From: Pyrus communis
Lineage: Eukaryota; Streptophyta; Magnoliopsida; Rosales; Rosaceae
Length of the DNA stretch: 64,000 nt
NCBI RefSeq assembly: GCF_963583255.1
Contig: NC_084816.1
Coordinates: 14,743,100 to 14,807,099, forward strand
Direction of reading: 5' to 3'
Made by a program: the position numbers and the translations under genes. The notes under the pieces are model-generated. The model did no database searches and was not told where the DNA came from. It saw only the letters and a list, made by a program, of their open reading frames with translations. Positions 37,330 through 64,000 of this stretch are shown here, piece after piece; the stretch's first letter is position 1; each line of letters opens with the position of its first letter.

Positions 37330-40290
37330 AGATAGACAATGGATTCATTGTTGGAATCACCTTAGTACAGAGTATAGAGAAGGGGTCTAATCATTCATTG
37401 ACGCTGCTTGTCACCATGTGAACCAGAATAATAAGATACTGGGTCCTTGTAGAGTTTGTCATAATAGAATTTTTCACCCAGTTAAAGATGTTCATCTCTA
37501 TTTATTGAATTCTGGTATGGATATGAATTATGATATATGGATAAATCATGGTGAGCATATTAATCAAGTGCAAGGAGAGTCTTCAATGTCTACGAACAAC
37601 AAGCCGATCAATAATTCTAATGTCAACATGTTTAATATGATGGATGATGCATTTGGAAGAATGCATGATGATGATGATCAAGATACAATAGGGGTCCAAG
37701 ATACCAAGTGGGGTGGAGATATGACCAATGCTTTTAGGGTAGATGTTGATACTTATGATATGTTGTTTTGTGAAGCTCAAAAGGAACTATACCCTGGATG
37801 CAATCAATATACAATTTTGTCTTATGTTGTGGAGTTAATTTACAACAAAGTTGATAATCACATGACAAACAAAGCCATTGATAAGATGCTAGCAATGATG
37901 AAGAAGATGTGTCCCAAATCAAACAGTGTTCCCGAATTGTTCCGTGAGTGCAAGAAGATATTGAAAAGTCTTGGATTGGGGTGTGAGAATATACATGCTT
38001 ACTATTATGATTGTGTATTTTTCTATGAAGAACATGAAAAGAATGATAGATGTCTAGTTTGTAATGAGACAAGGTATAAAGATAGTCATTATGAGCAAAG
38101 AAAAAAGGTTCCAAGAAAAGTGTTACGATATTTTCCACTTAAACCTAGGCTACAAAGGTTGTTCATGTCGAGACATACGAGTGAAGACATGAGGTGGCAC
38201 AAGGAAAAAAGAATTAATGATCTGAACACAATGAGACATCAAGCAGACTCTATCACATGGAAAGAATTTGGGAAATGTACCCTGATTTTGCTTAAGACCC
38301 ACAAAATGTCAGATTGGGCCTTGCAAGTGATGGGTTTACTCCATTTTCAGATTTAAGTAAGCCGTACAGTATGTGGCCAGTTGTTATATTTCCATATAAT
38401 TTGTCCCCTTGGAAATGTATGAAAAAACCGTTCTCTTTTTTAACCTTATTAATTCCTGGGCCAAAAGCACATGGAAATGAGATTGATGTGTATTTGCGCC
38501 CATTAATTGACGAGCTTAAGGAATTGTGGGAAAATGGCTTTCAAACTCATGATAAGATGATTGGGAGTACATTTAATTTGTGTGGAGCTATTATGTGGAC
38601 CATTAATGATTTTCCCGCTTATGAAAATTTATCAGGTTGGAGTACTCACGGTAAGTTGGCATGTTCGGTGTGCAATGAGGATGGATCGTACACCAAGTTG
38701 AGAAGTAAGTATTGTCATATTGGACATCGTCGCTATTTACCTATGAATCATTCATGGCTCAAAAATACTCAACTGTTTAATGGTCGTTGAGAAATGAGAC
38801 ATCGTCCACGAGAATTCTCAGGCGATGATATACTTGATCAATTTGATTACCTTCTACTCCGTAAGTTTGGTAAACATGATAGCAATAAAGATAGGAAGAG
38901 GAAGTGGAATGTTGAAAAATTAAATTGGACAAGGAAGAGTATTTTTTTCGAGTTGGAATACTAGTCCAAATTAAAGATTAGGCATAATCTAGACGTTATG
39001 CATATTGAGAAGAATATATTTGATTATTTGATGGGGACATTGCTGAATAAGGGGAAGTCAAAGGATACCCTCAAGGCCAGGATGGATTTACAAGACATGA
39101 ATATCAGGGAAAGTTTGCATTTGAAACTAAATGCACGTAGTATATTGGATAAGCCTTTGGCTCAATATGTATTCAAGCCATCTAAGCATAAAGATTTCTT
39201 GCAGTGGTTGAAATCAATTAAATTTCCAGATAGTTATGCAACAAATATATCCCATAAAGTGAGTGTGGATGAAGGGAAGGTGTTAGGTTTGAAGAGCCAT
39301 GATTATCATGTTGATGCAACGTGTGCTTCCAGTGGGAGTTAGAAAACATTTGAAAAAGCAGATATATGGCCCACGTGTTGAGTTGTCAAGTTTCTTCCAA
39401 CAAATATGTGCAAGGACACTGATTGTTTCTGATCTTGATAAGTTGGAAGAAGATATTATCCTCATATTGTGAAAACTAGAGAAAATATTCCCACCTGCAT
39501 TCTTTGTTCCCATGGTTCACTTAACAGTGCACTTGCCACGTGAAGCAAAATTGGCAAGACCAGTCAGATGCTGATGGATGTATCATGTAGAAAGGTAAAA
39601 TGACATCAGGTTTACTTTAATTGCATTAAGTATGTCTTTCTACATACTGGTAATTGTTCATTTACTAGATTGTTGGGCTCGTACAAGAAATCTGTACGTA
39701 ACAAAGCTCGCCCTGAAGGTTCTATCGTGGAAGCACACTTGGCATACGAGTCCTCAACTTTTTGCTCAATGTATATGTGTGATGTTGAGACTCCATTCAC
39801 TCGACCAGAAAGAAATGATGACGATGGTGATCCCAATGTGTTGCTCTGAGTGTTTGCACAAAAAACACGTCCATTTAGAGCTCATGTATTGGTTGAACTT
39901 TCGAGGGAAGATATAGAAGTGGCACATTGGTATATCTTAGACAATTGTGAAGAAATAGAAGACTTCAAGAGGTATGTGATAGTAATGGTTTTACATATAT
40001 TGAAATTATGGAAATTTTAAGTTTGTTTGAATGTATTTTTCATAGATTAATTGAATGTACAAGGGGGGGGGATATATAATGAGGTAGAAGGTTACAAGCA
40101 ACCCTACCTTGGCAAATCATCTTACATCAGTCAATGTAAATAATTGGTAGTACGATAGTGATCCATATGTGCTAGCTAGACAAGCACATCAAGTATTTTA
40201 CATTGATGACTTAAAGTTGGGCCATCCTTGGAAAGTTGTGCAGAAGATTCAACATAGGCATGTTTGGGATGTCTCTGAGAAAGATAATGA
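37330..40290 (+). pseudogene. TNP2-type CACTA transposase gene, decayed
   Basis: The reading order is that of plant TNP2 proteins. The transposase-associated zinc domain (GPCRVCHN, HLYLLNSGMDMNYDIWINHGE) is preceded by WIHCWNHLSTEYREGV and a TAA at 37387. The transposase core follows: YYYDCVFF, DRCLVCNETRY, WPVVIFPYNLSPWKCMK, FTL-like NLCGAIMWTINDFPAYENLS and HNLDVMHIEKNIFD. C-terminal domains are at 39340-39590 (QIYGPRVELSSFFQQICART, FPPAFFVPMVHLTVHLP), 39660-39830 (SYKKSVRNKARPEGSIVEAH) and 40147-40290 (QAHQVFYIDD, HPWKVVQKI). The protein cuts and rejoins the element ends. Frameshifts near 38300 and 39330, stops at 38788 and about 38963, and the LTR-like insertion at 40010-40118 disable it. 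Confidence 0.92.
40010..40118 (-). repeat. LTR-like fragment, inverted partner of 35248-35353
   Basis: Reverse complement of 35248-35353, with a run of nine G where the partner has six C. It interrupts the end of the TNP2 coding region between FKR and the QAHQVFYIDD block. Confidence 0.75.
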
Positions 40291-45610: not shown

Positions 45611-47264
45611 TGATAAGTTCATATTTATATAAATTTTATATCAAATTCACTTGTCTTTTCTTAGTTAGTTCCTTATATTTTTGAGTTATTTACTTTTTTT
45701 TTGTGTTTTGTAGGATTTGTCAAGTAAAGAAAAGAAAAATAACACAAGTGGAATTTTAAGTAACAAATTCGTCAAAACTGCCTGTGCAGGTCAGCTGACT
45801 TTGGAAGCTAGTTGCGGACAGCTCAGAATGAATTAGAGAATGAGCCTTGTATGCTTGGAAAGCTACGGATGTCTATTTTCTGGAGCATTTCGCGGATTGT
45901 TAATATCATTTTTCTAGAAGAAGTTATGGCTGTTTCAACACTGAAAGGTTCCCAAGAGGCTGAGCAGTTTGTAACTGACAAGAAAACATTGAAAGCAATA
46001 AATCCAATAAATCTAGTAGCCAAAACTGATGCAATCAAGAACAAACCAGCTGACACCTATTCAAATATTAGAGGAAATGGAATTAAAGATGAGGATTAAG
46101 AGGGAGTAATTGGCATAAAGGCTACCCAAGGAGTTGCAATTGTTTTACATTTCCTCTCACTTATTGTCATCACTAAATGGCTATTAGTGGGTGAGTTAAG
46201 GAGAAGAAAATGATGCAGCAAGAATTGGTTTAAAAGTAGCATTGGGGAAGGAAGGAGAAGGGAAAGCCTCCGGCGATTTCTTTCGGTTCTATTTTCTCAA
46301 ACTCATGTCTATCTTTTGTTTTAACTTAAGGATTGTGTAACTAAATTTTTAGTAGTTAGGGGCTGTTTGAAGCCCCGAATATGATTGCAAGTTTGTTATG
46401 ACATTTCGTTTGAATTACTTTTATAATGGATGAAAATTGGTTCACTACTTGTCTCATTGATGAATTCTTTATGTGTTTTCTATGGATGCATACTTAGTAA
46501 GCATATCTAGGATTCTAATGCTATGAATATGTGTGTGCCTACCCTTGTTGAATGAGGACCTACATATGTTCTAGAGTAGTACGTGTTAATTGCGATTAAC
46601 ATGTGAACCAATTTCTAGGATAAGTAAGACAACGCCAGTACTTACGATGCCTTGTGATGACTCAAACTCTTTTCGTTCTTAATGATTTCTACTTGTTAAA
46701 TCTATGAACACGCCATTCTAGATTGCATGCTAGAGACTGATTTAAGTTGAAAACGCCATTCTTTTAACATACTACATAAGAAAGAGTAATAGGTTGAGTT
46801 CTAACATTGAGCCAACTTGAGCATCTTCATCCGGAAATAGAGGGAATTTGAATGAAACATAACATGTTTGCATGATTATTTAGTGGTGGATAACAATTCC
46901 CCTAACTCGTTTTTCTTAATTTGTGAACTACTTAAAAATCTGTTTTTGTCCTCTTTTGTTTTTCGATTTAATCAACTCCAAAAATCCCAAAACTTTGTGT
47001 GAGAGCAGCTCCGTGTGTCTAGTATCTACATATAAAATTTTGTAGACTTTAGATAAGTGTAAGTTGGTCTAATAATTATTTTTCGGTGGCTGGTCAGTAG
47101 GGAAAGCAGCCCAGTTTTTGTGACATTTTAAGTAGTTAGATAAAACAATCTTCTGTGGGAAAGACCCTTATTTTCATATGCTACAATTGACAAATATTAT
47201 TGTTAATAAGGAAAATTAATAGGACATTTGTGTGCTACTTTATGGTGTGCTTTTAATCCTATCA
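45611..47264 (+). repeat. Solo LTR (1654 bp) with 5-bp duplication ACATC
   Basis: Begins TGATAAGTTC and ends AATCCTATCA, with ACATC at 45606-45610 and 47265-47269. It is the inverted counterpart of the Athila-2 LTR at 48733-50449 over most of its length, so it comes from the same family. No internal sequence remains between its ends. Confidence 0.92.
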
Positions 47265-47269
47265 ACATC

Positions 47270-48732
47270 GCCAATAACTTCTAGCCGCCGAGAGTCATTT
47301 TACCTATTGAGTTGTTGCGGGATCTAGTGTGATGACATTAAAATGATCCTATGCCAACTACAATGGTATGAACAATTGCCTGGTTTGCAGACGTTTGGTT
47401 TAAAGATGTCGAATTTGCAGACGATTTCCCCATTTCTGTTTTCTTCTTGATAGAGCAAGTTTAATGGTCATGAATTTTGTAGTTATCTTAGCACTTGTCT
47501 CACTAGGCGTGCCAAAACGTTGACGCTCAAAATTACAAAGTTATATGGCCGTAGACCGAGTAATTATGAGCTAACTACATCCTTATTATGAATCCGAGCA
47601 TGCCAAATTGCAACCGGGCTTAGTCGAGCAAATAGAGTAGATGTGGGGGCGATGTTGAATGCCTTGCAAGTTTCTTCACTTGAGTGACTATGACCAAGGA
47701 AGGAACACGTCTCGGACTTGGATTCCATGACCTAAAGACAAGGTTGCTTAATCACTACAAAGTTAAAAGTGTTTCAATGCTGCCTGATTCTACGGCGCCA
47801 ATGCTGTTTACTTATCCAAACTGAACGTGTTACCGATTGTTAACACAATTACTATTAACTTATCCAAATTGAAGATACGTTGACAGAAGGATTACGATAG
47901 TGTTTTTCTCAGGGGTGTGAGAAATGTCTCAAGTAGAGTGAGGGTTTCCGTGTATAACATTGGAGTTGTTTGTTGAGTTGAAGGGGCTTTTCATGTTGTG
48001 GACCTTTTTCTATTTTTAGGGATGGTCTTCATGATAAACAAGTCTACCGAGTAGAATTCTAATGAGACTGTATTTACTCAGCATTTACCTTAATATTCTC
48101 TCTTTATCTCTTCTTCTATTCTTTGCCAAGACTTCATCCTTATTCAGTCTCTGCATGTTTGATTCCAACTAGGATTTTGAACTTACCCCTTTTATGCGAT
48201 TGACTCATTCTTATTTGATCGAGAATAATATCTTATCCTTAGAATAATTCACATCTAATGAAAGCTTATTCTAATCCTTGGCAGTTTCAGTGTACTGAGG
48301 ACTCGACTGTGCCATATCTAAACTTGATCATTTCACAAAAGTCCCATTTCCATGAGGACTCAGTCTGGAAAAAAAAAAAGGAATAAAATTACATTACATG
48401 AGGTTGAGAACAGGGTTAACTTTTCACTCGTAATCTAGATACAACTAGCCTACTCTAGCATTGTATCTGCCGAAGTTTTGCCAAAATTAGCTTAGCATCA
48501 GGCTTAGACGACTTTCTATTGTTCTTCATTACCTGCCTATTGGGAAAAGATTGTGAAGGCTGCAAAACTACCAATCATTATGGATATACTTGTTAAAGGT
48601 AGACACTCACTGAATATGAACTTGTTATTGTTGTTGGAAATAATAGTGAAAAATATTTGGAATTTTAAGAACACTTACATCTACATTTGAGAGCAGATGT
48701 TATAAAATAATGAGCTAAAATATAAAGAGCTT
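47270..48732. other. Unassigned sequence between the two inverted LTRs
   Basis: I see no coding region, repeat structure or RNA gene here. It is the spacer of an inverted pair of related LTRs and may be older host or transposon DNA. Confidence 0.4.
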
Positions 48733-50449
48733 TGATAGGATTAAAAGCACACCACAAAGTCGCACACAAATGTCCTATTGATTTTCCTTATTAACACTAA
48801 GATTTGTCAATTGTAGCATATGAAAATAAGGGTCTTTCCCGCAGAAGTTCGTTTTATCTAACTACTTAAAATGTCACAAAAACTGGGCTGCTGTCCCCAC
48901 TGACCAGCCACCGAAAAATAATTATTAGACTGACTTACACTAATCTAAAGTCTACAAAATTTTATATGCAGATACTAGACACACAGAGCTACACTCACAC
49001 AAATTTTTGGGATGTTTGGAGTTGATTTTCTATTTAAATTAAATCGAACAAAAAACAGAACAGAGACAGATTTTTGAGTAGTTCGCAAATTAAGAAAAAC
49101 GAGTTAGGGGAATTGCTATCCACCACCAAATAATCATGCAAACATGTTATGTTTCATTCAAATTCCTTTCATTTCCGGATGAAGATGCTCAAGTTGGCTC
49201 AATGTTAGAACCCAACCTATTATTCTTTCTTATGTAATATGTTAAGAGAATGGCGTTTTCAACTTAACTTAGTCCCTAACATGCAATCTAGAATGGTGTG
49301 TTCATAGATTTAACAAGTAGAAATCATTAAGAACGAAAAGAGTTTGAGTCATCACAAGGCATCGTAAGTACTAGCGTTGTCTTACTTATCCTAGAAATTG
49401 ATTCACATGTTAATCGCAATTAACAAGTACTACTCTAGAACATATGTAGGTCCTCATTTGACAAGGGCAGGCACACACATATTCATAGCATTAGAATCCT
49501 AGATATGCTTACTAGGTATGCATCCGTAGAAAACATAAAAAGAATTCATCAATGAGACAAGTAGTGAACCAATTTTCATCCATTCGTAAAAGTAATTCAA
49601 ACGAAATGTCATAACAAACTTGCAATCATATTCGGGGCTTCAAAACAGCCCCTAACTACTAAAAATTAGTTACACATAATTCTCAAATTAAACCAAAAGA
49701 AAGACATGAGTTTGAGAAGATAAAACCGAGAGAAGAGAATGCCAAGATTTCCTCCTTCCTTTCCTTCCTTCCCCAACGCAGCAGCCTTTCCTTTTTTCCT
49801 TGCTTCCTTCCTTGTTTTTCTATATTTTTTTTCACACTTTTTCTCCCCTTTTGCTGCTGCAACCTGTAGGTCTTTTTCTTCTTTTCTGCTGCCACAGTTT
49901 TTTCTCCATAACTCCCTCCACTAACAGCCATTTAGTGATGACAATAAATGGGAGGAAATGCTAAAACAATTGTAACTCTTTGGGCAGCCTTTATGCCCAT
50001 TACTCTCACTTAATTTTTCATTTCCTCTGATATTTGAATAGGTGTTAGCTGGCTTGTTCTTGGCTGCATCAGTTTTGGCTGTTAGTTTTATGGGAGTTAT
50101 TGCTTTCAATGCTTTCTTGTCAGTTACAAACTGCTCAGCCTCCTGGGAACCTTTCAGTGTTAGAACGACCATAACTTTTTCTAGAAAAATGATATTAACA
50201 ATCCGAGAAATTCTCCAGAAAATAGACATCCGTAGCTTTGCAAGAATATAAGGTCATTCTCTAATTCATTCTGAGCTGTCCGTAACTTGCTTCCAAAGTC
50301 AGCTAACCTGCACAGGCAGTTTTGACGAATTTATTACTTAAAATTTCACTTGTGTTATTTTTCTTTTCTTTACTTGACAAATCCTACAAAACACAAAAAC
50401 AAAGTAAATAACTCAAAAATATAAGGAACTAACTAAGAAAAGAAAAACA
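48733..50449 (-). repeat. 3' LTR of Athila-2
   Basis: Starts TGATAGGATT on the plus strand. The right boundary is inferred from AAAAACA followed by TTAGCTCCCCAC, which in sense gives a purine tract GTGGGGAGCTAA and then TGTTTTTC. The related solo LTR has about 42 additional bases at this end, so the boundary could be wrong or this LTR could be trimmed. Confidence 0.75.
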
Positions 50450-52270: not shown

Positions 52271-54923
52271 TCATTCAAGGGAAGCTGGTTCTTGGAGGGG
52301 TACAACCTCCACATCATGCTCCGCAAAAGACTCGTAATATGGTTTGAGTCTATGTCCATTCACTTTGAACACGTTTCTGGTCTTTGCACTTTGGATTTCC
52401 ACTGCACCATGAGGAAAAATATTAGTTATAACAAACGGACCAACCCATCGAGAACGAAGCTTACCTGGAAATAACCGAAGGCGAGAATTAAATAGAAGAA
52501 CTTTTTGTCCAATGGCAAAGTTCTTCCTTGATATCATCTTGTCATGAAATGCCTTTGATTTCTCCTTGTATATTCGACTAGACTCGTATGCATCATTCCG
52601 GATTTCATCTAACTCATTCAATTGAAGCTTCCTCTGCTGTCCAGCAACACTCATGTCCATGTTGTAGGCTTTGATTGCCCAATAAGCTTTGTGTTCTAAT
52701 TCTACTGGAAGACGACATGGTTTCCCATAAACTAACCGAAATGGGGACATTCCAATAGGAGTCTTATAAGCAGTCCTATATGCCCACAATGCATCGTTCA
52801 AGTGCATGCTCCAATCCTTCCTACTAGGACTCACAGTTTTCTCCAAAATTTGTTTCACCTCACGGTTTGATACTTCTGCTTGACCACTAGTTTGCGGATG
52901 ATAAGGTGTAGACACCTTATGTGTGACATTGTACTTCCTAAGCAACACTTCAAATGTTCTATTGCAAAAGTGACTCCCTCCATCGCTAATGATTGCTCTA
53001 GGTGTCCCAAATCTTGCAAAGATGTTAGTCTTAATAAAATCTGAAACAATTTTTGAATCATTAGTTTTGGTGGCTTTCGCTTCCACCCATTTAGAAACAT
53101 AATCCACAGCCAATAAAATGTAAAGAAAACCATCTGAAGATGGAAAAGGTCCCATGAAATCAATGCCCCATACATCAAAGATCTCAACAATCAAAATAGA
53201 GGTTTGTGGCATTTGATTTCTTGGGCCCAAGTTACTTGTTCGTTGACAACGATCACATGTTGCACAAAACTCGTACGCATCCTTAAACAAACTAGGCCAA
53301 TAAAAACCGCTTTCTAACACCTTAAGGGCTGTCCTCTTTGCTCCAAAATGGCCACCACATGCATAAGAATGACAAAAAGTTAGAATAGATTTAAACTCAT
53401 ATTCGGGGACACACCTTCTAATCAATTGATCAGGGCAATATTTCCACAAATAAGGATCATCCCACTCGTAGTATTTGGCGGTTTTGACAAGCTTATCTTT
53501 CTGAGCACGTGTAAAATCATCCGGAATCTTTTTGGTGACCTTGTAATTGATAATATCTGCATACCAAGGGTCAGTAACCTTTAATGAAAACAATTGCTCA
53601 TCCGGAAAACTCTCACGTAAAGGGATGAAATCTTCCTCTGTGTTTGAGTGCACATGTCTGCTAAGATGATCTGCTACAACATTCTCACTCCCCTTCTTAT
53701 CCTTGATCTCCAAGTCAAACTCTTGAAGCAGAAGTATCCATCGAATGAGTCGCGGTTTTGCATCTTTTTTTTGTGAGTAAATACTTCAAAGCTGCATGGT
53801 CAGAAAACACAATAACTTTAGTTCCAATTAGATAAGATCTAAATTTTTCTTCAGCAAATACAACAGCTAGAAGCTCCTTCTTTGTTGTTGAATAATTCAA
53901 CTGTGCATCATTGAGTGTTCGTGATGCATAATAGATGACATGTGGCACTTTGTTGACACGCTGTCCTAGAACTGCACCGACAGCATAATCTGAAGCATCG
54001 CACATTAACTCAAAAGGTAAACTCCAATCTGGTGGCATGATCACAGGAGCCGTGGATAACAACTCCTTAAGTTTGTTGAATGCTACCACACACTCTTCAT
54101 TCATATCAAATGTTGCATCCTTTTGAAGCAAACGACACAAAGGTCTAGAAATCATTGAGAAGTCTTTCATAGACCTACGATAGAAACCTGCATGTCCAAG
54201 AAAAGAACGAACCTCCCTAACAGTAGTAGGAAGGGGTAAAAAACTAACAAGTTCTACTTTAGATTTATTAACTTCAATTCCATTTTCAGATATGATATGC
54301 CCTAAAACTAATCCATGTGAAACCATGAAATGACATTTTTCCCAATTTAAGACCAGATTAGTTTCTTGACAACGTTTTAGAACTAGGGATAGATTATGTA
54401 GACATGTATCAAAAGAATCACCATAAACTGAAAAATCATCCATGAACACTTCAATTATTTTCTCAATCATATCAGAAAAGATACTTACCATACACCTTTG
54501 AAATGTGGCAGGGGCATTGCAAAGTCCAAACGGCATCCTCCGGTATGCAAATGTGCCAAATGGACATGTGAAAGTCATCTTTTCTTGATCCTCCGGAGCA
54601 ACTGCAATTTGATTATATCCAGAATAACCATCAAGAAAGCAATAATGAGAATGACCAGCTAGCCTTTCTAACATTTGATCAATGAATGGAACTGGAAAGT
54701 GATCCTTGTGTGTGGTGCTGTTTATCTTCCGATAATCTGTACAGACTCTCCAACTATTTTGCACACGTGTAGGCACTAGCTCACTTGCTTCATTCTTAAC
54801 AATTGTGAATCCAGATCGCTTCGGAACTACTTGAACAGGGCTCACCCACTTGCTGTCTAAGATAGGATATATGATGCCAACATCAAGAAGCTTGATAACC
54901 TCTTTCTTGACGACCTCCATCAT
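52271..54923 (-). pseudogene. Athila-2 pol (RT to integrase), one frameshift, truncated
   Basis: RT starts within [16 protein letters not shown] right at the Athila-3 junction and includes WVSPVQVVPKRSG, CTDYRKINSTTHKDHFPVPF, FMDDFSVYG and [10 protein letters not shown]. RNase H begins [15 protein letters not shown]. The frame breaks at a run of eight T on the plus strand (53765-53772), consistent with a one-base slippage. From 53713 on the next frame carries VADHLSRH, the integrase zinc motif ([21 protein letters not shown]) and core ([23 protein letters not shown]) to the stop at 52271. It is otherwise open and close in sequence to the other two copies. Confidence 0.93.
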
Positions 54924-57369
54924 TGATGCGTAGATTATACGCACACAAACTAAACCCTATTTGTGACAATTGTAGTAATGATGTAAGTAGGGATCGTTCT
55001 AACTGGGGATTAACTAGGGGTGCTAATCTATTTTGAATTGACTTGAAAACACAAAAACTAAATGTAAAGACTCTTAACAAGACTACTATGACTCAGAATA
55101 GCTTTGAAAGACTCAAACTGCTTAAAACAATCAAATTGACTCAAATAGAAACTAGAACTTGATTTAGACGAATTTGAAAGTGTTTATGACTCCAAAAGCT
55201 TAAAGATACAAAAATAAAACAAATACGAATGATTAAGACTCAACGAAATATGGGGGAAATGTGTTTGGACGATATTAAATTAAAAAGACAGAATATAATT
55301 AAAGGCAAAATGTAAATATGAATGTGATGAAAATATGGATGATGGAATAGCCAAGGGGTTCTTCTCCACACATGTTACACTTGCATACAATATTGATTCT
55401 CAGTTGGTCTTTCGATAAGTTGTGAAACTCAACACCCCGGGTTAATTAGGTCCGCTTAAATTAACCGTCAAGTTCTCCTTAAGTTAATGAATTGGATGGG
55501 TTAGCGCAACGCAATTCACCACATTCTCCAAAAGTCCTTTACGTGAAAAGCACAATAAAGATACAATCAAAGATCATTAAGCATTATGAAAACTATAAGT
55601 GTTGACAAGGCATTCGTTACTATGGAATACGCATGAAATTAGTGCCAAGAATTCATTTAACGCGGTTGTTTATAAGCAACCTCCACTACTTGTGAATATA
55701 AGTTCGTAACGATTAGGTGAAATTCACTTATATTCTAGAGTCATATTCATGCATGAAAATTAAGCGCGCATTCTTAATAAACATTCATAAATAAGTTATC
55801 AATCAAACGGTTAAACAAATTGAATCCACAACTTATGAAATTCCAACGAAAGTTAATCAATTCATATTGCAAATATAAACATAGTTTCGAATCACCCCCT
55901 AGCTAAAGGGGGTTTAGTTCCTCATAACTTTGAAATCAAAGAAACCCCTAAACATTCCAACAACTCAAACTTGAATTGTATGAACGTTTAGGCACTCTTC
56001 TCTTCCATTCTCATACGTACAAAACAAAGAGAATTCAATTTAAACTTTAAAATCAAAGAAACACCTAAACATTCCAACAACTCAAACTTGAATTGTATGA
56101 ACGTTTAGGCACTCTTTTCTTCCTCGTTGTTGTAGCACAAGGTCTAAGGTGAGCTTTGGGGATTATGTGAAGTGTTTTGGAGGGATGGGAAGTGGTTGGA
56201 TAGTGGCTGCAATGGAGGAGAAAAACTGCACAGAAATGGAAGGGGATTTGCGGCACAAGGGTTGTGTTTGTGTTGTGTCAAGTGTTGTGAATGGATGAAT
56301 GCAAGGGTATTTATAGGAGTAGTGGAGGGAACATATGGCTGTTTGTTTAAGCATGCATGTGCTGGAATGTGGTGGAAAATAGCTAGGAAAGCTGGAAAGC
56401 ACAAGGATCCCACGGCAATGACAGTTTTTGATGTTGGATTTGCATGTGTGTGCTGGAAATGGTGTGTGTATGCATGTGTTTGGGAAGCTTTCTTGCTCAT
56501 TTTCTGGATGCAATGATGAAGAGTTTAATAATTAATGCATGTAGGTGGCTGAAATGATGAAGAATGAGTGGTGGAAATGAAAGGGAAAGCTATAAAGACA
56601 TGTGAAGATGCTGGAATTGTGAGTAGGCCACGGCAATGAGTTTTCAGGATGGTTCTTTGTGGTTGTGATGCATGTGATTGCATGTGTTGATTGCTAAGGT
56701 GTGTGATGATGAGTGTAAGTGGAATAAAGAATGAATGAAGGCATGTGAATTAGGTGGAATGCTGGAATGATGAAGGGGATACACGGCACAAGGTTTGGAA
56801 TGTGGAGAAAGGGGTGTGAATGATTATGGGATGCTGGAAATCTGGAAAGGCACGACAATGAAGAATGTTTGGTGCTTGAAATGCATGTAAATGCATGTGA
56901 GTGCATGTGTGTGTAAATAGGTGAAAATGTGGGTTAAAGTGATGCATGGCTAGGAAATGTGAGTGAATGATGTGCATGTGTGTGAATGCATGTGGAATAA
57001 AGAAGAGTATGGAAGTGAATAAATCATAATATGGCTAGTTTAAAGGGCTAGGGTTTAAGTACATAGAATGGGCCTAAAATAGGTTGGTTTGCATGGCATA
57101 GAATGTTTGATTTGGGCTAGGCCCTTTGTTTTATGTCCCCAAAGAGCATACAAGGCTTCAATTTTCGTCCATCCTCTTTGCTCCATGATTAAGCTATCCA
57201 ATCCATGCCCAAAAGTGCCCCAAATAGCCTCAAAATGCACTTTTTTGCTCCTTAAGCCCTTAGAACCTGAAAACACACAAAAGAAGCATAAAGGACTAAA
57301 ATAACTAGAGAAACATAACGTAAATGCACGAGAACAAGCCATTTAAGTCGCATGAATATGCTCTTATCA
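54924..57369 (-). repeat. 3' LTR of Athila-3 (2446 bp)
   Basis: Plus-strand ends TGATGCGTAG and CTCTTATCA. About 55310-55900 closely matches 23240-23830 of the Athila-1 LTR, and the last roughly 130 bases also match, but the middle (about 56000-57050) is unrelated or strongly diverged. Confidence 0.9.
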
Positions 57370-59265
57370 AACTCCCCCACACTTATCTTTTGCTAGTCCT
57401 CGAGCAAAACAAAATAAAAACAAATAAACAAAACGACACTAAACACGTAAAACACAACCTAAACCTTCCAACAACCGTCTTAGGGATTTCCAATGCACAT
57501 GACATGTTAAAAATCATCATTCTCACAGATTTTAGTCATCTTCACACTTAAGTACATTCTTAATCATAGTCACCATATACTAGTTCACAATTAAGCATTT
57601 AAAACCATGTTTTGAATGTAGTAACATGCCTTAGAGAATTTGCTCAATTCCTTACAAGATATGCACTCGATTTTCACTCAGAATTTCTAACTACACACCC
57701 TAATCTAGTCATATGTGAGAAGATTGATGTAACATGAAAACGAACACTCACATATATGTATCACAAAGAACGCAATTTCTGGAGTTAATAAGCATGTTTA
57801 GATATGATCTCATGAATGGAATGCTACTACTTAGACGCGAGAACCAGTGACACCATATGCTCATACCTAGTTCAAACTCCACAAATTGAAATACACAACA
57901 CTCAAGATAGAAGTCAAGGGTTGTAACGGGGCTTGGGGTATGTGGATAACAAAGAAGGGATATGGAAAACAAAGGTTCTTAAAGAAATAGTGAGCAAAGC
58001 ATTTGAATCAACCTAGAATTCACTTTTGAATGAAAACTCAACTTTTGAACAAAAAGGGAGAATTTAGACAATTTACGCCCATAATTGGTGTTTTGGAACC
58101 TTTCTTCAATCACTTATTCTTTCATTTTTTTTTTTTCAAGCTCTTTTTTTTTTTTTTTTTCTTTCTTTTCTCTTTTTTTTTTTTTTCTTTTTCTTTTCTT
58201 TTGAATCTCAAAACATAAACACTTAAACATTCTCTCCCCCACACTTATTTTCTTTCATAATGTAACTCAAAAGGAATTCAATTAAGTCATGCTCACTATC
58301 TTTTAAGAACAAGGGTGGGGATTGTCCTAAACTAGGCTAGGTGAGGAAAATGTGGGTAAACAAAGAATAAAGGCTAAACAAGGCTCAACGGGGTTAAAAC
58401 TTACAACATATACGAAGTATGGGAAGTAAGGCTATTTGGCTATGGTGGTGGTCACTACACAACTTCTTCTTGAATATGTGTTATGCAAATCAATAACATG
58501 CTTTGAATGAAATGGGCAAGAGTTCTAGCATTTGGAACTATATGATGAAACGCCTTCTAAGTAGTAACCGAGCAAAGAATAATGAGATCATGCAACGACT
58601 TTAGAAAACAAGAAATCACAGATTATACTCTCCAAAGAACGTTATAGGCTCAAGTCTCTCAGGGTTGTAGTGTTTGTTTGAGTTCCTTCCTTCAAGCATG
58701 TTACAAAAACGATTTTTTTTCTTTTATGATTGCATGTGAAGTCATACATTATAACCATAACCAAGCATATACCAAGAGTAAATCAAACTTTTCTCTATGT
58801 TAATAACTCTTTCTAACCGTCATGCAATTATAAACCAAATCCTTATCATTGTGTTGGAAGGTACCCTAAGACACAAACACACAAAAACGACTCAAAACAC
58901 TCTTTTTAGGCTTTTCAAAACATTTTCTTCAAATTTTTATGTGATTTTCGGAGTTATAAAACAAAACACACTAAAACACTCTAAAACAATTTAAAAACAC
59001 CTTAAAACAGCAAGGAACAACATTTGAAGTTATGGGTGATAAAATCCCACGAATTTGCATTAACAACATTAGTTACCCCCCCCACACTTAAACCAAACAT
59101 TGTCCTCAATGTTTTAAGCATAGATTCACACAAAACATAAGTAAACACACAAAAAGCACTTAAACATACTAAACATGGCAAAATGTAATTAACAAAGAGA
59201 AGAGTTTAGGGACGCAAATCTGGTTATGGAGTGTAAATTCCATCTTCTCTTTGTTGATTGCATTG
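57370..59265 (-). other. 3' non-coding region of Athila-3
   Basis: Closely follows the Athila-1 region 25239-27060, including shared blocks around 57560-57900 and 58440-58700. TAAGTGTGGGGG-like tracts (complement) lie at 57373-57384 (the PPT), 58236-58247 and 59075-59090. Long T runs fall between 58126 and 58190. Confidence 0.75.
59095..59114 (-). other. Conserved hairpin downstream of pol in Athila-3
   Basis: Plus strand AAACATTG-TCCT-CAATGTTT, identical to the Athila-1 hairpin and in the same position relative to the adjacent purine tract. Confidence 0.65.
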
Positions 59266-60033
59266 AGGCTTGATCTTGATGATTCCACAGGCTTACTCTC
59301 GAACTGGTTTCCGCCCATCATTGATTTTCCTTTGTGCTACTCTTGAACTGGGCAGCAAGATTCTTTTGGTCTTCCCCGAAGGTCTGAGCTTACCCCTTTG
59401 GTCTGTTTCTTTGTTCAATCTTTCCAATTCGTATTGAAAAGGGTAGGAGGATAACTCAGCCTATGTTTGTCTCCACATGCTTCAATGTATCATTTTCACT
59501 TGCCTTACTCGCTCCTCTTTGCAGAAGTGGTCCCTTCTCTGGAAGTGTATCAACCGTTGAAGATGACTACTCGAGAGCAACGCTAGGTAAGCAATCAGGA
59601 ATAGATTCCAGGCAGTTGGCTCCAACTCGGAAGACTGACTCCAAGTGCCGGCTGATTGCTTCTTTCACTTTGCCATGCGAGTAAGAACAAGGACAAAGAA
59701 AAAGACAGGGAAAAAGCATGATATGAGATACTTTTTCTTTTGACCTTGATGATATGAGATACCTTTGCTTTTGAAGAAGCGGTGAATGAATCAGCACATG
59801 TATTTGTTGTGCTGTTTCCTCCTGGGTCATCTGTACTCTAGGTATCTGGTATCATCTTTGGGGAAGAAGAAAAAATTGAGTAATTCGAAAGGTTTTGCTG
59901 GGAGTGCGCCCTCAGAGGTGAGAGAGAGTTGGGCATTTTCTTCAGGTCTGCCTTGCCATAAAAGACGAAGGTCGACATATATAGAGATAATATCAAGTGG
60001 TGGTACTGTTCTTTTACCCTTGTCGACAAATGT

Positions 60034-60314
60034 CTCTTCGATATCAGAACGACGCCTCTTCGATTTCTGAGCAGGCGCCCCTTCGATTTCTGAACGACGC
60101 CCCTTTGCTTTCTGAACGACATGTAGTAGTGCGGATGCGGCTCCTTTTGACAAAGCTGCACGCGTTTTCTGAAAAGCAGAGAAAGCGTCGCCGAACTTTG
60201 CGCTTGTCGGCTAAAGATGTGTAGTTGCGATGATGGCCTCCACGTGTTGTCTGAAAAGAAGAAATCTTTTGACAAAGTTGAACACGTCTTTTGAAAAGCC
60301 GAGAAAGCGTCGCC
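60034..60314 (+). promoter_or_regulatory. Tandem repeats upstream of the antisense ORF
   Basis: Four units of about 24 bp around CTTCGATTTCTGAACGACGC occupy 60034-60123. A second pair of about 48-bp units (TTTTGACAAAG ... GAGAAAGCGTCGCC) lies at 60145-60192 and 60267-60314. A TATA-like TTTTTATAGAGG lies near 60367, about 120 bases before the ORF start. The arrangement looks like a promoter with repeated elements; that role is inferred. Confidence 0.45.
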
Positions 60315-60486
60315 AAAATTAAGCCGGAAATTCCGGCTTTTTGAATCGGTGGACGCGTCGCCATGGCTTTTTATAGAGGTATCGATCACCGCCAACAAGC
60401 ACACTCTGAAGATTTCCCATTCTTGAAAATCGACTCCGGCCCTTTGAAATTTAACTCTATCCCTTCTCTTTGAACACTTTTGAAAA

Positions 60487-61128
60487 ATGCAAAACTCATC
60501 GAACCTTAGCTTGGAATTGAGCCTTAGCAGTGATACGGGCGCGCCGCGTCAAGGTAACGTATGGCGCCCTTCTTTCTTATCTTCTAACGGTCCTCTCACA
60601 GGTGAGGACTCCGTGATGCAGGACGCCACAACAGCTACAATAGTAGCTAGGAACCTCCTCACTCCAAAAGATAGTAGGCTGCTGTCAGGACGGTCCGATG
60701 AGTTGGCCGTTCAAGAGTCCCTCGCACTTAGTGTTCAGTGTGCGAGCTCTGTGTCCAACATGGGCCAACGCCTGCTTGCCCGCTCCCGTCAGGTGGAATC
60801 ATTGATGGCAGAGGTGGAAAGTCTTAAGCAAGAGATCCAGCAGCTTAAGTATGAGAATAGAAGTTTGCACGTGCTTGCCAACAACTATTCGACGGGCATG
60901 AAAAGGAAGCTTGATGAGCTGCAAGAGTCTGAAGGTCGGATTCACAGTGACCGTCAAAGGTTTTCGTCTTTCCTCCAGAGGCACCTTTTTCCTGGCTCAT
61001 CCAGCGCTTGGCCAAGTATTGAGGCCTGGAATGCTCTAGCTCCGATGCCTCTCGCTCCAATGCCTTCCGCTCCGATGCCTTCCTCTTCAAAGCCTCGTAG
61101 TGGGGCTTCACGTAAACAACCTTTGTGA
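60487..61128 (+). CDS. 213-residue coiled-coil protein, antisense within Athila-3
   Basis: The frame opens at ATG 60487 in a good context (AAAAATGC) and is free of stops for 213 codons. It begins serine/leucine-rich (MQNSSNLSLELSLSSDTG), has a central segment about 98-160 predicted by eye to form a coiled coil (QVESLMAEVESLKQEIQQLK, MKRKLDELQESEG) and ends with repeated APMP units (residues 185-198) and a basic tail. No catalytic motif, signal peptide or membrane segment is seen. It points against the retroelement's pol, which ends 155 bases downstream, so the two genes converge. I do not recognise the family; a captured host gene or a lineage-specific accessory ORF are both possible. Base composition is richer in G+C than the neighbouring non-coding region. 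Confidence 0.6.
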   Translation: MQNSSNLSLELSLSSDTGAPRQGNVWRPSFLSSNGPLTGEDSVMQDATTATIVARNLLTPKDSRLLSGRSDELAVQESLALSVQCASSVSNMGQRLLARSRQVESLMAEVESLKQEIQQLKYENRSLHVLANNYSTGMKRKLDELQESEGRIHSDRQRFSSFLQRHLFPGSSSAWPSIEAWNALAPMPLAPMPSAPMPSSSKPRSGASRKQPL

Positions 61129-61282
61129 AGCTCCATCTTTCTCCATGTTTAGTATTTTTTTTTTTTTTTTTTTTTTGGTAATCAAATCGGAGATCAATGG
61201 ACAACTTTATTTTATTCAGTGTATTGGGTTGCCTCCCAAGTAGCGCTTGCTTTAACGTCTTCCAGCCGGACGGTACCTCCGT

Positions 61283-64000
61283 TTAAGCTTGACTAGGTTC
61301 CACGGCATGGAGGGGTACCTCCTCCACAACATGCTCCTCAAACATCTCGTAATAGGGCTTCAATCGATGCCCATTCACTTTGAATTCTTGCTGCGTCCTT
61401 GAACTTTTGATTTGCACCGCACCATGAGGGAAAACATTAGTGACAATAAAAGGACCAACCCATTTGGAACGCAACTTACCCGGAAACAACCGAAGGCGAG
61501 AATTGAACAACAACACTTTCTGCCCAATAGAGAACGTCTTAGCACGAATCATCTTGTCATGAAATGCCTTTGTTTTCTCCTTGTAAATCCAGGCATTCTC
61601 ATATGCTTCATTTCGGATTTCATCAAGCTCACACAATTGAAGTTTCCTATGTAAACCTGCGGCATCAAGGTCCATATTGAACGTTTTGACGGCCCAATGT
61701 GCACGATGCTCTAGTTCGACGGGAAGATGGCATGGCTTCCCATAGATGAGCCGAAAATGTGACATCCCAATGGGGGTTTTGTAGGCAGTGCGATACGCCC
61801 ACAATGCATCGTTTAAGCGCAAACTCCAATCCTTCCTTGTAGGCCCTACGGTCTTCTCAAGAATCTGCTTGATTTCCCTATTCGAAACCTCGGCTTGCCC
61901 GCTCGTTTGAGGATGATAAGGTGTGGCCACCTTATGCATGACATTGTATTTCTTGAGCAACGCCTCGATGGTTCGATTGCAAAAATGGGAACCTCCATCA
62001 CTGATTAGCACTCGTGGCATTCCAAACCTTGCAAAAATGTTAGTTTTCACAAAATCTGCAACCACTCGAGAATCATTAGTTCGGGTGGCTTTTGCTTCCA
62101 CCCATTTCGACACATAGTCCACAGCAAGCAATATATAAAGAAACCCATGTGACGAAGGAAAGGGACCCATAAAATCAATATCCCAAACATCAAAGATTTC
62201 AACACTAAAAATGGGGGTTTGCGGCATTTGCTGTTTAGGACCAATATTGCCCGTTCTTTGGCATCTATCACAAGACATGCAAAATGTTCTAGCATCCCTA
62301 AAGATGGTAGGCCAATAGAAACCACATTCTAACACCTTAAGTGCTGTTCTTTGAGTGCCAAAGTGTCCCCCACAAGCATAAGTGTGACAAAAGGTTAGAA
62401 TAGCTTTAAACTCAGAATCGTGCACACACCTACGTATAACTTGGTCAGGGCAATATTTCCATAAATATGGGTCATCCCACACATAAAACCGTGCCTCTTT
62501 CTTCAGTTTATCACATTGGTGTTTAAGTAATTCACTAGGAACATGTTTAGACACTAAATAATTCACCAAATCAGCATACCACGGTTCACTTACCTTGACG
62601 GACATCAGTTGCTCATCTGGGAATGTCTCTATGATAGGCACGGCATCCTCCTCATGCACCATACGGCTTAAGTGGTCAGCCACCACGTTTTCACTTCCCT
62701 TCTTGTCTCGGATTTCGATATCGAACTCTTGGAGAAGAAGCATCCAACGAATAAGTCGTGGTTTGGCCTCCTTCTTGGTGAACAAATACTTCAATGCTGC
62801 ATGGTCAGTATAAATAATAACTTTAGTACCAAGCAAATAAGAACGAAATTTATCTAAAGCAAATACAACAGCAAGAAGTTCTTTTTCAGTGGTAAAATAA
62901 TTCAATTGTGCATCATTTAAAGTCCGAGAGGCATAATAGATAACATGCGGCCTCTTTTCCTTCCTTTGCCCCAAAACAGCTCCTAATGCATAATCGGAAG
63001 CATCACACATAAGCTCAAAAGGAAGGCTCCAATCCGGTGGAACTATGATACGGGCCGAAGTTAGTGTTTCTTTGAGGTGATTGAACGCCTTCTCACACTC
63101 CTCGTTGAAGTCAAACGCCACATCTTTCTGGAGGAGACGGCAAAGAGGGTTTGAGATCTTGGAGAAGTCCTTGATAAATCGCCTATAAAATCCTGCATGA
63201 CCAAGAAACGAACGAACCTCTCGAACCGAAGTAGGAGAGGGTAAGTAGCGTATAAGATCTATTTTCGATTTATCCACTTCAATTCCTTTTTCTGAAACAA
63301 TATGCCCTAGAACTATGCCTTGTCTAACCATAAAGTGACATTTTTCCCAATTAAGCACAAGGTTAGTTTCTACACATCGTTTCAAAATCATTGTGAGATT
63401 TTCCAAACAACCATCAAATGAATCACCAAACACACTGAAATCATCCATAAATACCTCAATAATCTTTTCCACAAAATCTGAAAAGATACTTACCATGCAC
63501 CTTTGAAACGTGGCCGGAGCATTGCATAAACCAAAAGGCATGCGACGATAAACAAAAGTACCAAAGGGGCATGTGAAAGTTATCTTTTCTTGGTCATCCG
63601 ACGCTATGACAATCTGATTATATCCAGAATAACCATCAAGGAAACAATAAAAAGAATGACCGGCTAACCTTTCAAGCATTTGATCAATGAACGGCAAAGG
63701 GAAGTGGTCCTTCCTTGTGGTGGCGTTGAGCTTCCTATAATCAATGCACACTCGCCAACCTGTTTGGATACGGGTTGGCACAATCTCATTCTCAGCATTC
63801 TTCACCACTGTCACTCCGGACTTCTTTGGAACACATTGCACCGGTGACACCCAACGACTATCAGAGATCGGATAAATCACTCCACAATCAAGAAGTTTGA
63901 TAATCTCCTTTTTCACAACTTCCATCATTGGAGGGTTGAGACGGCGCTGAGCCTCTCGAGTTGGTTTAGCCCCCTCCTCTAGAAGTATGCGATGCATGCA
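61283..64000 (-). CDS. Athila-3 pol (RT, RNase H, integrase), open frame, 5' end off window
   Basis: At least 904 codons without a stop, continuing past the window edge toward protease and gag. Residues counted from the M at 63997: RT with [20 protein letters not shown] and FMDD at 183-186; RNase H with acidic residues D332, E373, D398 and D441; integrase zinc motif H538, H545, C576, C579; integrase core D608, D667, E703, with exactly 35 residues between the last two (DD35E). The C-terminus ([20 protein letters not shown]) is the usual one for this lineage, without a chromodomain. All catalytic residues I can check are present. The only oddity is IDFM preceded by W-D instead of W-G. Confidence 0.94.

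What the first reader, a model, noticed from the sequence alone, without database searches (positions are those of the whole stretch)
59266..61222. A discrete module with an antisense coiled-coil gene inside one Athila element
Comparison of three related elements in the window shows that Athila-3 alone carries about 1.96 kb between the pol stop and the conserved 3' non-coding region. The module has an intact 213-codon ORF on the opposite strand, its own repeat-rich upstream region and sharp junctions with ATTG at each side. A convergent extra gene in an otherwise intact retroelement suggests capture of a host gene or an accessory function such as silencing or transport control. I cannot tell which.
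Basis: partly seen in the sequence, partly recalled or inferred. Interest (0 to 1): 0.78.

Follow-up and report, generated by a model that had tools for sequence, protein, structure and literature searches.

The report
Antisense gene cassette shared between retroelements
A pear-like plant genome holds a small self-contained gene that runs backwards inside a jumping element, apparently came from a distantly related kind of jumping element, and is kept intact even in copies that lost their own replication genes.

Summary
It is not a one-off: the ORF core has 2,980 matches in the genome (reversed control 0). The module is a gene cassette: conserved upstream block, TATA motif, ORF, 3' end. The same cassette lies, again antisense and downstream of pol, in Tat-lineage elements, whose pol is only about 30% identical and has the extra RNase H that marks Tat. 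Best reading: an Athila lineage took the cassette from a Tat element by recombination between elements; the direction rests on a partly resolved tree. A founder deletion then removed gag-pol, giving a non-autonomous element (782 junction matches). In sampled copies of it the ORF still shows amino-acid-level constraint (shared variants, nonsynonymous/synonymous ratio 0.12-0.17). The protein is predicted to be one 97-residue helix with disordered ends. Antisense ORFs at this place are a known class in Tat/Retand elements; the cassette shared across lineages and its retention without gag-pol appear new. Its function is inferred, not shown.

The parts
54924..57370 (-). 3' LTR of the carrier (element 3)
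   Evidence: 99.5% identical to the 5' LTR in L039 3125-5632 beyond the window; target duplication ATCAT on both outer sides
57371..59265 (-). PPT and 3' region of the carrier, shared with element 1
   Evidence: 25128-26952 matches 57258-59116 at 81%; PPT read
59262..59265 (.). left ATTG
59266..61222 (+). the module (antisense gene cassette)
   Evidence: absent from elements 1 and 2; repeat family in the genome
59551..59769 (+). conserved upstream block, probably regulatory; splice-like signals unexplained
   Evidence: 76-80% identical to C1 copies where the ORF is 64-70%; no clear codon phase
60036..60120 (+). 22-bp tandem repeat, 3.8 copies
60368..60379 (+). TATA motif TTTTTATAGAGG before the ORF
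   Evidence: of 20 aligned rows 16 have TATAG, 3 TATTG, 1 none
60487..61128 (+). antisense ORF, 213 codons plus stop; one long predicted helix
61129..61222 (+). 3' end of the cassette; the AATAAATAAG of four C copies is lost here
61223..61226 (.). right ATTG
61283..64000 (-). 3' part of the carrier's gag-pol (RT, RNase H, integrase), running on beyond the window
   Evidence: open frame of 1,844

Best explanation
The module is a complete antisense gene cassette (upstream block, TATA motif, ORF, 3' end) that belongs to Tat-lineage LTR retrotransposons and was acquired by an Athila lineage of pear ancestry through recombination between elements (sharing across lineages: shown; direction Tat to Athila: supported by a partly resolved tree; template switching during reverse transcription: inferred). 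In Athila it was kept as an accessory gene. A founder deletion later removed gag-pol and gave a non-autonomous element that spread while the gene stayed under amino-acid-level constraint (shown for the sampled copies). Gag-pol could be borrowed from other copies, this gene was not lost; so the protein probably works near the copy that encodes it. I propose that it is transcribed from its own promoter, self-associates through its long helix, and acts in the nucleus on the element's own upstream block or transcript to keep that copy expressed or to tune it against silencing (inferred; about 0.3 for this last step).
For: Copies: 2,980 core matches, control 0. Other lineage: loci L042-L071 match the module including upstream DNA; next to L061 lies a pol 28-35% identical to the carrier's with an RVT_3 RNase H, and L071 shares its end. 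Of 150 copies found with P0017, 22 have a Tat second RNase H within 12 kb, all 22 downstream on the opposite strand; 20 of 66 with identity 73% or more, 2 of 84 below; chance expectation 0.007 per copy. Tree: C2 (Tat) lies outside and the P0017 group, to which the Tat-borne pear copies are closest by identity, beside the Athila-type group. Deletion: 21 of 35 distinct places have a PBS within 320 bases of the ORF, 20 of them with the same gag truncation; 782 junction matches, control 0. Constraint: dN/dS 0.23 against C1; gag-pol-less copies, shared variants 19 nonsynonymous to 35 synonymous, ratio 0.17, singletons 69 to 35, 0.61; six copies picked by DNA score 6 to 15, 0.12; variants not seen in 8 pol-bearing copies 9 to 16, 0.17. 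Gene anatomy: TATA motif, helix 71-167.
Against: No transcript or protein was seen; no call tests function. The AATAAA of other copies is lost in the window copy and one of 20 rows lacks the TATA motif. Root of the tree is a midpoint and many forks are open; letters of the P0017-type pear copies could not be fetched. Pol next to the C1 group was not identified. Most loci for the selection test were picked by protein score, which lowers nonsynonymous counts; singletons are also below 1 (0.41 in the DNA-picked set), so base bias or selection of rows may add to the signal. Copies with and without pol mix in the tree, so constraint could be refreshed by recombination with pol-bearing copies. Only 8 of 12 pol copies checked on C1 have the ORF next to them in the partial lists. 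The upstream block's splice-like signals are unexplained.
Confidence: 0.6

Rival explanations
1. The cassette is ancestral to Athila and Tat elements and was lost from most Athila elements; no transfer took place.
For: It is found in both lineages.
Against: The cassette differs far less between lineages (ORF 64-78% DNA identity) than the pols do (28-35% protein identity); accessory ORFs are said to diverge faster than pol (PMC6317226, section 13). Elements 1 and 2 lack it.
Confidence: 0.12
2. A host gene with its promoter was captured, by Athila or earlier by Tat.
For: It looks like a cellular gene unit, with splice-like signals upstream.
Against: Named hits listed are Pyrus and Malus repeats only; no Pfam family over its cut-off. 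Only 120 best hits per search are listed, so a distant host gene is not excluded.
Confidence: 0.1
3. The module is an independent transposon that inserted into Athila with a 4-bp duplication ATTG.
For: ATTG on both sides; element 2 has a single ATTG there.
Against: No terminal inverted repeats seen by eye at the ends; the C1 copies continue past the apparent left end; copies examined lie beside pol or LTR of retroelements or in unresolved context.
Confidence: 0.05
4. The gene is a passenger in the gag-pol-less elements: they spread recently and are refreshed by recombination with pol-bearing copies, so the protein does nothing for them.
For: Copy types mix in the tree; L040 has LTRs 99.5% identical; about half of shared variants (24 of 49) also occur in pol-bearing copies.
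Against: Variants not seen in 8 pol-bearing copies keep a ratio of 0.17.
Confidence: 0.25

Closest known systems
Antisense additional ORFs between pol and 3' LTR (aORF-3R: maize Grande gene23, rice RIRE2, Silene Retand, bean PvRetro13)
   Same: Place, orientation, own promoter (reported for gene23), presence in many copies (PMC7264820, parts 1-2 of 3).
   Different: Those named families whose lineage is stated in the passages read are Tat/Retand kin; this carrier is Athila by its pol. Retand ORFs mostly carry TRP28 (PMC11963269, parts 1-3 of 5), which is absent here.
Bean ORF2 with SMC-type coiled coil (pvRetro13 and kin)
   Same: Antisense, coiled-coil type, shared between families (PMC4093653, passages).
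   Different: All 15 such families fell outside the clade with Athila4, apart from two without RT; sizes 211-939 aa; no sequence comparison was possible.
HODOR, the 9.2-9.7 kb high-copy repeat of apple and pear
   Same: Length near 8.85 kb, high copy number, pear and apple, clustered in chromosome blocks (PMC6901071 and PMC13334179, passages).
   Different: Sequence not compared; 232 full-length copies in Bartlett pear against 782 junction matches here.
Antisense genes of retroviruses such as HBZ of HTLV-1
   Same: Antisense gene with a nuclear, regulatory role (PMC11963269, part 1).
   Different: Analogy only; here the TATA motif is inside the cassette.

Membership tests
Athila lineage (carrier) | Ty3/gypsy pol order RT, RNase H, integrase | tested here: met
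Athila lineage (carrier) | No additional RNase H (which marks Tat within OTA; PMC6317226) | tested here: met
   None in the 904-residue part of pol; the part before RT was not scanned
Athila lineage (carrier) | RT groups with Athila in a phylogeny | not tested
Athila lineage (carrier) | PBS complementary to tRNA-Asp | tested here: inconclusive
   TGGCGCCGTTGCCGGGGA follows the LTR; its assignment to tRNA-Asp is recalled
aORF-3R class | ORF between pol and 3' LTR, antisense | tested here: met
aORF-3R class | In most copies of the family | tested here: inconclusive
   8 of 12 pol copies on the first 31 Mb of C1, from partial ORF lists
aORF-3R class | Own antisense promoter and transcript | tested here: inconclusive
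   TATA motif conserved; transcript not testable here
aORF-3R class | At least 250 codons (limit of the 2019 survey) | tested here: not met
   213 codons; the limit is a survey cut-off, not a biological criterion
Retand TRP28 proteins | PF04195 domain | tested here: not met
   Not among the 17 families at E up to 1
Env-like ORF | Sense orientation | tested here: not met
Tat lineage (carrier of L061 cassette) | Additional RNase H between RNase H and integrase | tested here: met
   RVT_3 at L072 1991-2359, E 1.5e-17
HODOR | Sequence identity to KX869746 | not testable with these tools
   Record not held; the describing paper is not in the library

The most novel reading that the evidence does not exclude
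An antisense accessory gene cassette moves between retrotransposon lineages as a unit and is the one gene that a non-autonomous element cannot give up: gag-pol can be borrowed from other copies, this protein cannot, so it acts in cis on the copy that encodes it, for example to keep that copy out of silencing.
Probability: 0.35. Interest if true: 0.85.

Novelty: new variant of a known kind. Interest (0 to 1): 0.62.

Why it matters
What antisense ORFs of plant retrotransposons do, and where they come from, is called unknown in the two papers read on them (PMC7264820, PMC11963269). Here evolution has run two tests: the cassette sits in two element lineages, and it was kept after gag-pol was lost. 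That points to a portable function at the level of the single copy and makes the question testable with stranded RNA-seq, localisation and binding assays.

Tried and rejected
Independent transposon: considered because of ATTG on both sides and an apparent left end in L063; most other C1 loci read past that point with shared sequence, so L063 (and L046) are interrupted there. RNA family: no Rfam match at E up to 0.5 over 54900-61400. Second coding exon in the upstream block: splice-like signals and short open stretches were seen, but mismatches by phase are 0.17, 0.21, 0.23, no clear codon pattern. Known domain: weak scores only, none over a cut-off. TRP28 elsewhere in the genome: 13 matches, not compared with the cassette's places. 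Dating L041: its two LTRs align only in pieces. Pol next to C1 copies: not found; one weak integrase match near L053 (34%, E 8e-4) and a stray match near L047. A fold search was not run, since a single helix would match many structures.

Biases and dropped rows: L001-L008 were picked by DNA score, L009-L038 and L042-L071 by protein score. Of L001-L038, L009, L017 and L018 repeat places of L001, L004 and L003; L040 and L041 repeat L004 and L010. L064 was dropped for a shifted frame. L019 and L022 were counted as gag-pol-less on their flanks although one search found no PBS near; they were left out. L013, L034, L036, L038 and L073 were put in neither class. The 8 'pol-bearing' copies include L020, which has only about 0.4 kb of pol before an LTR, and four (L021, L024, L029, L037) with rearranged sequence between ORF and pol; they are not all autonomous. 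L041 has other frames of 133-196 codons besides the ORF. Adjacency lists are partial: 150 (129) candidates scored per search, first 100 places listed per pattern. Not-in-print statement: no report of a cassette shared by Athila and Tat, or of an antisense gene kept in a gag-pol-less element, appeared in the listings of searches; the library lacks most subscription journals (two papers asked for by DOI are not held).

Full report
Window 59266-61222 is present in the third Athila-type element and missing from the other two; ATTG stands at 59262-59265 and 61223-61226. The 213-codon ORF at 60487-61128 is open, on the strand opposite to gag-pol. The genome has 487 Mb in 29 contigs; matches or lengths show 17 contigs of at least 19.8 Mb, pear has 17 chromosomes (PMC6901071, passage), and the nearest named proteins are Pyrus. 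I infer a pear.

The carrier is a complete LTR element. Its 3' LTR is 54924-57370; its 5' LTR lies beyond the window in L039, 99.5% identical apart from a short duplication, with target duplication ATCAT. It sits inside element 2, whose gag-pol resumes behind it. Its gag-pol is one open frame, 1,844 residues. Pol has RT, RNase H and integrase and no second RNase H, which by the criterion of Neumann 2019 (PMC6317226, passages and section 13) makes it Athila and not Tat; no RT tree was made.

The module is a repeat family. A DNA search scored 40 of 3,942 candidates and gave 51 matches; a protein search scored 150 of 4,230 candidates; a 30-base core of the ORF has 2,980 matches with up to 3 mismatches, none for the reversed pattern. 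Of the 100 exact matches listed, all on C1 and cut off at 31.15 Mb, 90 lie beyond 25 Mb, a clustering that recalls HODOR at apple centromeres (PMC13334179, passages).

Many copies have no gag-pol. Of the 35 distinct places in L001-L038, 8 have pol sequence downstream of the ORF, 21 have a PBS within 320 bases and 6 are unresolved. Of the 21, 20 show the same truncation of gag after about 12 codons, so one founder deletion is likely. The junction has 782 matches in the genome, 0 in the control; of 26 exact ones on C1 between 28.7 and 31 Mb, 16 have an exact ORF core within 1.5 kb, all on the opposite strand. In copy L040 the LTRs are 99.5% identical, the target duplication is GCCCC, the element is 8,848 bp and the ORF is the longest frame, the only other one of at least 100 codons having 126. 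HODOR of apple and pear (9.2-9.7 kb; PMC6901071 and PMC13334179, passages) is a lead only.

The same cassette lives in another element lineage. A search with the apple protein P0086 gave 30 loci, L042-L071. They match the window in pieces between 59304 and 61230, upstream DNA included. Downstream of L061, on the opposite strand, lies a broken pol only 28-35% identical to the carrier's, with an RVT_3 RNase H between RNase H and integrase: a Tat element. L071 shares the end of that pol. For copies found with P0017 letters could not be fetched, but places suffice: of 150, 22 have a Tat second RNase H within 12 kb, all 22 downstream and on the opposite strand; 20 of 66 with at least 73% identity and 2 of 84 below. 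Cassettes are far more alike than the pols beside them, so the cassette was exchanged between lineages. In the protein tree (151 rows, quick method, midpoint root) the Athila-type copies form one group of 23 rows with 99 support inside a set of 47 (99) that also holds the P0017 group; C2 (Tat) and C1 lie outside. With Tat on both sides, Tat to Athila is the likelier direction; many forks are open. Recombination between elements has been proposed for the second RNase H within Tat (PMC10508981, passages).

Anatomy of the cassette. About 110 bases before the ORF is a TATA motif: TATAG in 16, TATTG in 3 and none in 1 of 20 aligned rows. In the four C copies printed the 3' end carries AATAAATAAG just before the point where similarity to the window ends; the window copy has lost it. 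A block at 59551-59769 is 76-80% identical in C1 copies where the ORF is 64-70% and shows no clear codon phase, so it is probably regulatory; its splice-like signals remain unexplained. Because upstream DNA came along, the cassette was not taken up as a processed messenger of the ORF. Template switching between packaged RNAs is the simplest route; it is inferred.

Selection. Between Athila-type and C1 copies dN/dS is 0.23, with differences of 0.33, 0.28 and 0.50 at codon positions 1, 2 and 3. In 23 gag-pol-less copies, variants shared by two or more are 19 nonsynonymous to 35 synonymous (ratio 0.17) and singletons 69 to 35 (0.61) (Fisher p 2e-4). Six copies picked by DNA score give 6 to 15 (0.12) and 41 to 31 (0.41), Fisher p 0.027. 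In 21 copies, shared variants not seen in 8 pol-bearing copies are 9 to 16 (0.17), those also seen there 9 to 15 (0.19). In C1 copies singletons are near neutral (0.97), shared variants 0.63. The sample is small and mostly picked by protein score, singletons too are below 1, and copy types mix in the tree, so refreshment by recombination is possible.

The protein has no Pfam family over its cut-off. AlphaFold2 on a 34-row alignment gives one main helix at residues 71-167, mostly above pLDDT 90, and low-confidence ends; overall pLDDT 66.7 and pTM 0.37. A self-associating coiled coil is inferred.

How it probably works: an antisense messenger from the cassette's own promoter, as reported for maize Grande gene23 (PMC7264820, parts 1-2), makes a coiled-coil protein that acts on the element's DNA or RNA. 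Gag-pol could be lost and borrowed; this gene was kept. That fits a protein that works near its own copy, such as a factor against silencing, but no call tests it.

[quoted passage not shown] This one lacks TRP28 and, with 213 codons, falls under the 250-codon limit of the 2019 survey. New, as far as searches show in a library that lacks most subscription journals, are the cassette shared by Athila and Tat and its constrained survival in a gag-pol-less element.

Noticed in passing
P0004, P0006, P0007, P0009, P0010, P0014, P0051, P0087: In a Pyrus hybrid annotation these retroelement accessory proteins are named S ribonuclease or S2-RNase, very likely a misannotation.
   Followed up: no
P0139 and P0176: Two apple clusters of the C1-like form stand for 2,492 and 1,030 member sequences, so this form was hugely amplified in apple.
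   Followed up: no
window 45651-50446: Large inverted repeat, arms together about 1.6 kb on each side, 90-96% complementary, about 1.5 kb between the innermost arms.
   Followed up: no
window 37418-38356: ORF with a Transpos_assoc domain, probably part of a CACTA-type DNA transposon (the type is recalled).
   Followed up: no
window 54923 and L039 5633-8000: Element 2 is split by the insertion of element 3 into its pol.
   Followed up: partly
window 59551-59769; L048, L051, L055, L061, L071: Upstream block with splice-like signals, duplicated in several Tat-type copies; its role is unexplained.
   Followed up: partly
L073 281-958, 1280-1948: A copy with degenerate gag remains next to the ORF, in an element unlike both the carrier and L040; a second gag-pol-poor form may exist.
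   Followed up: no
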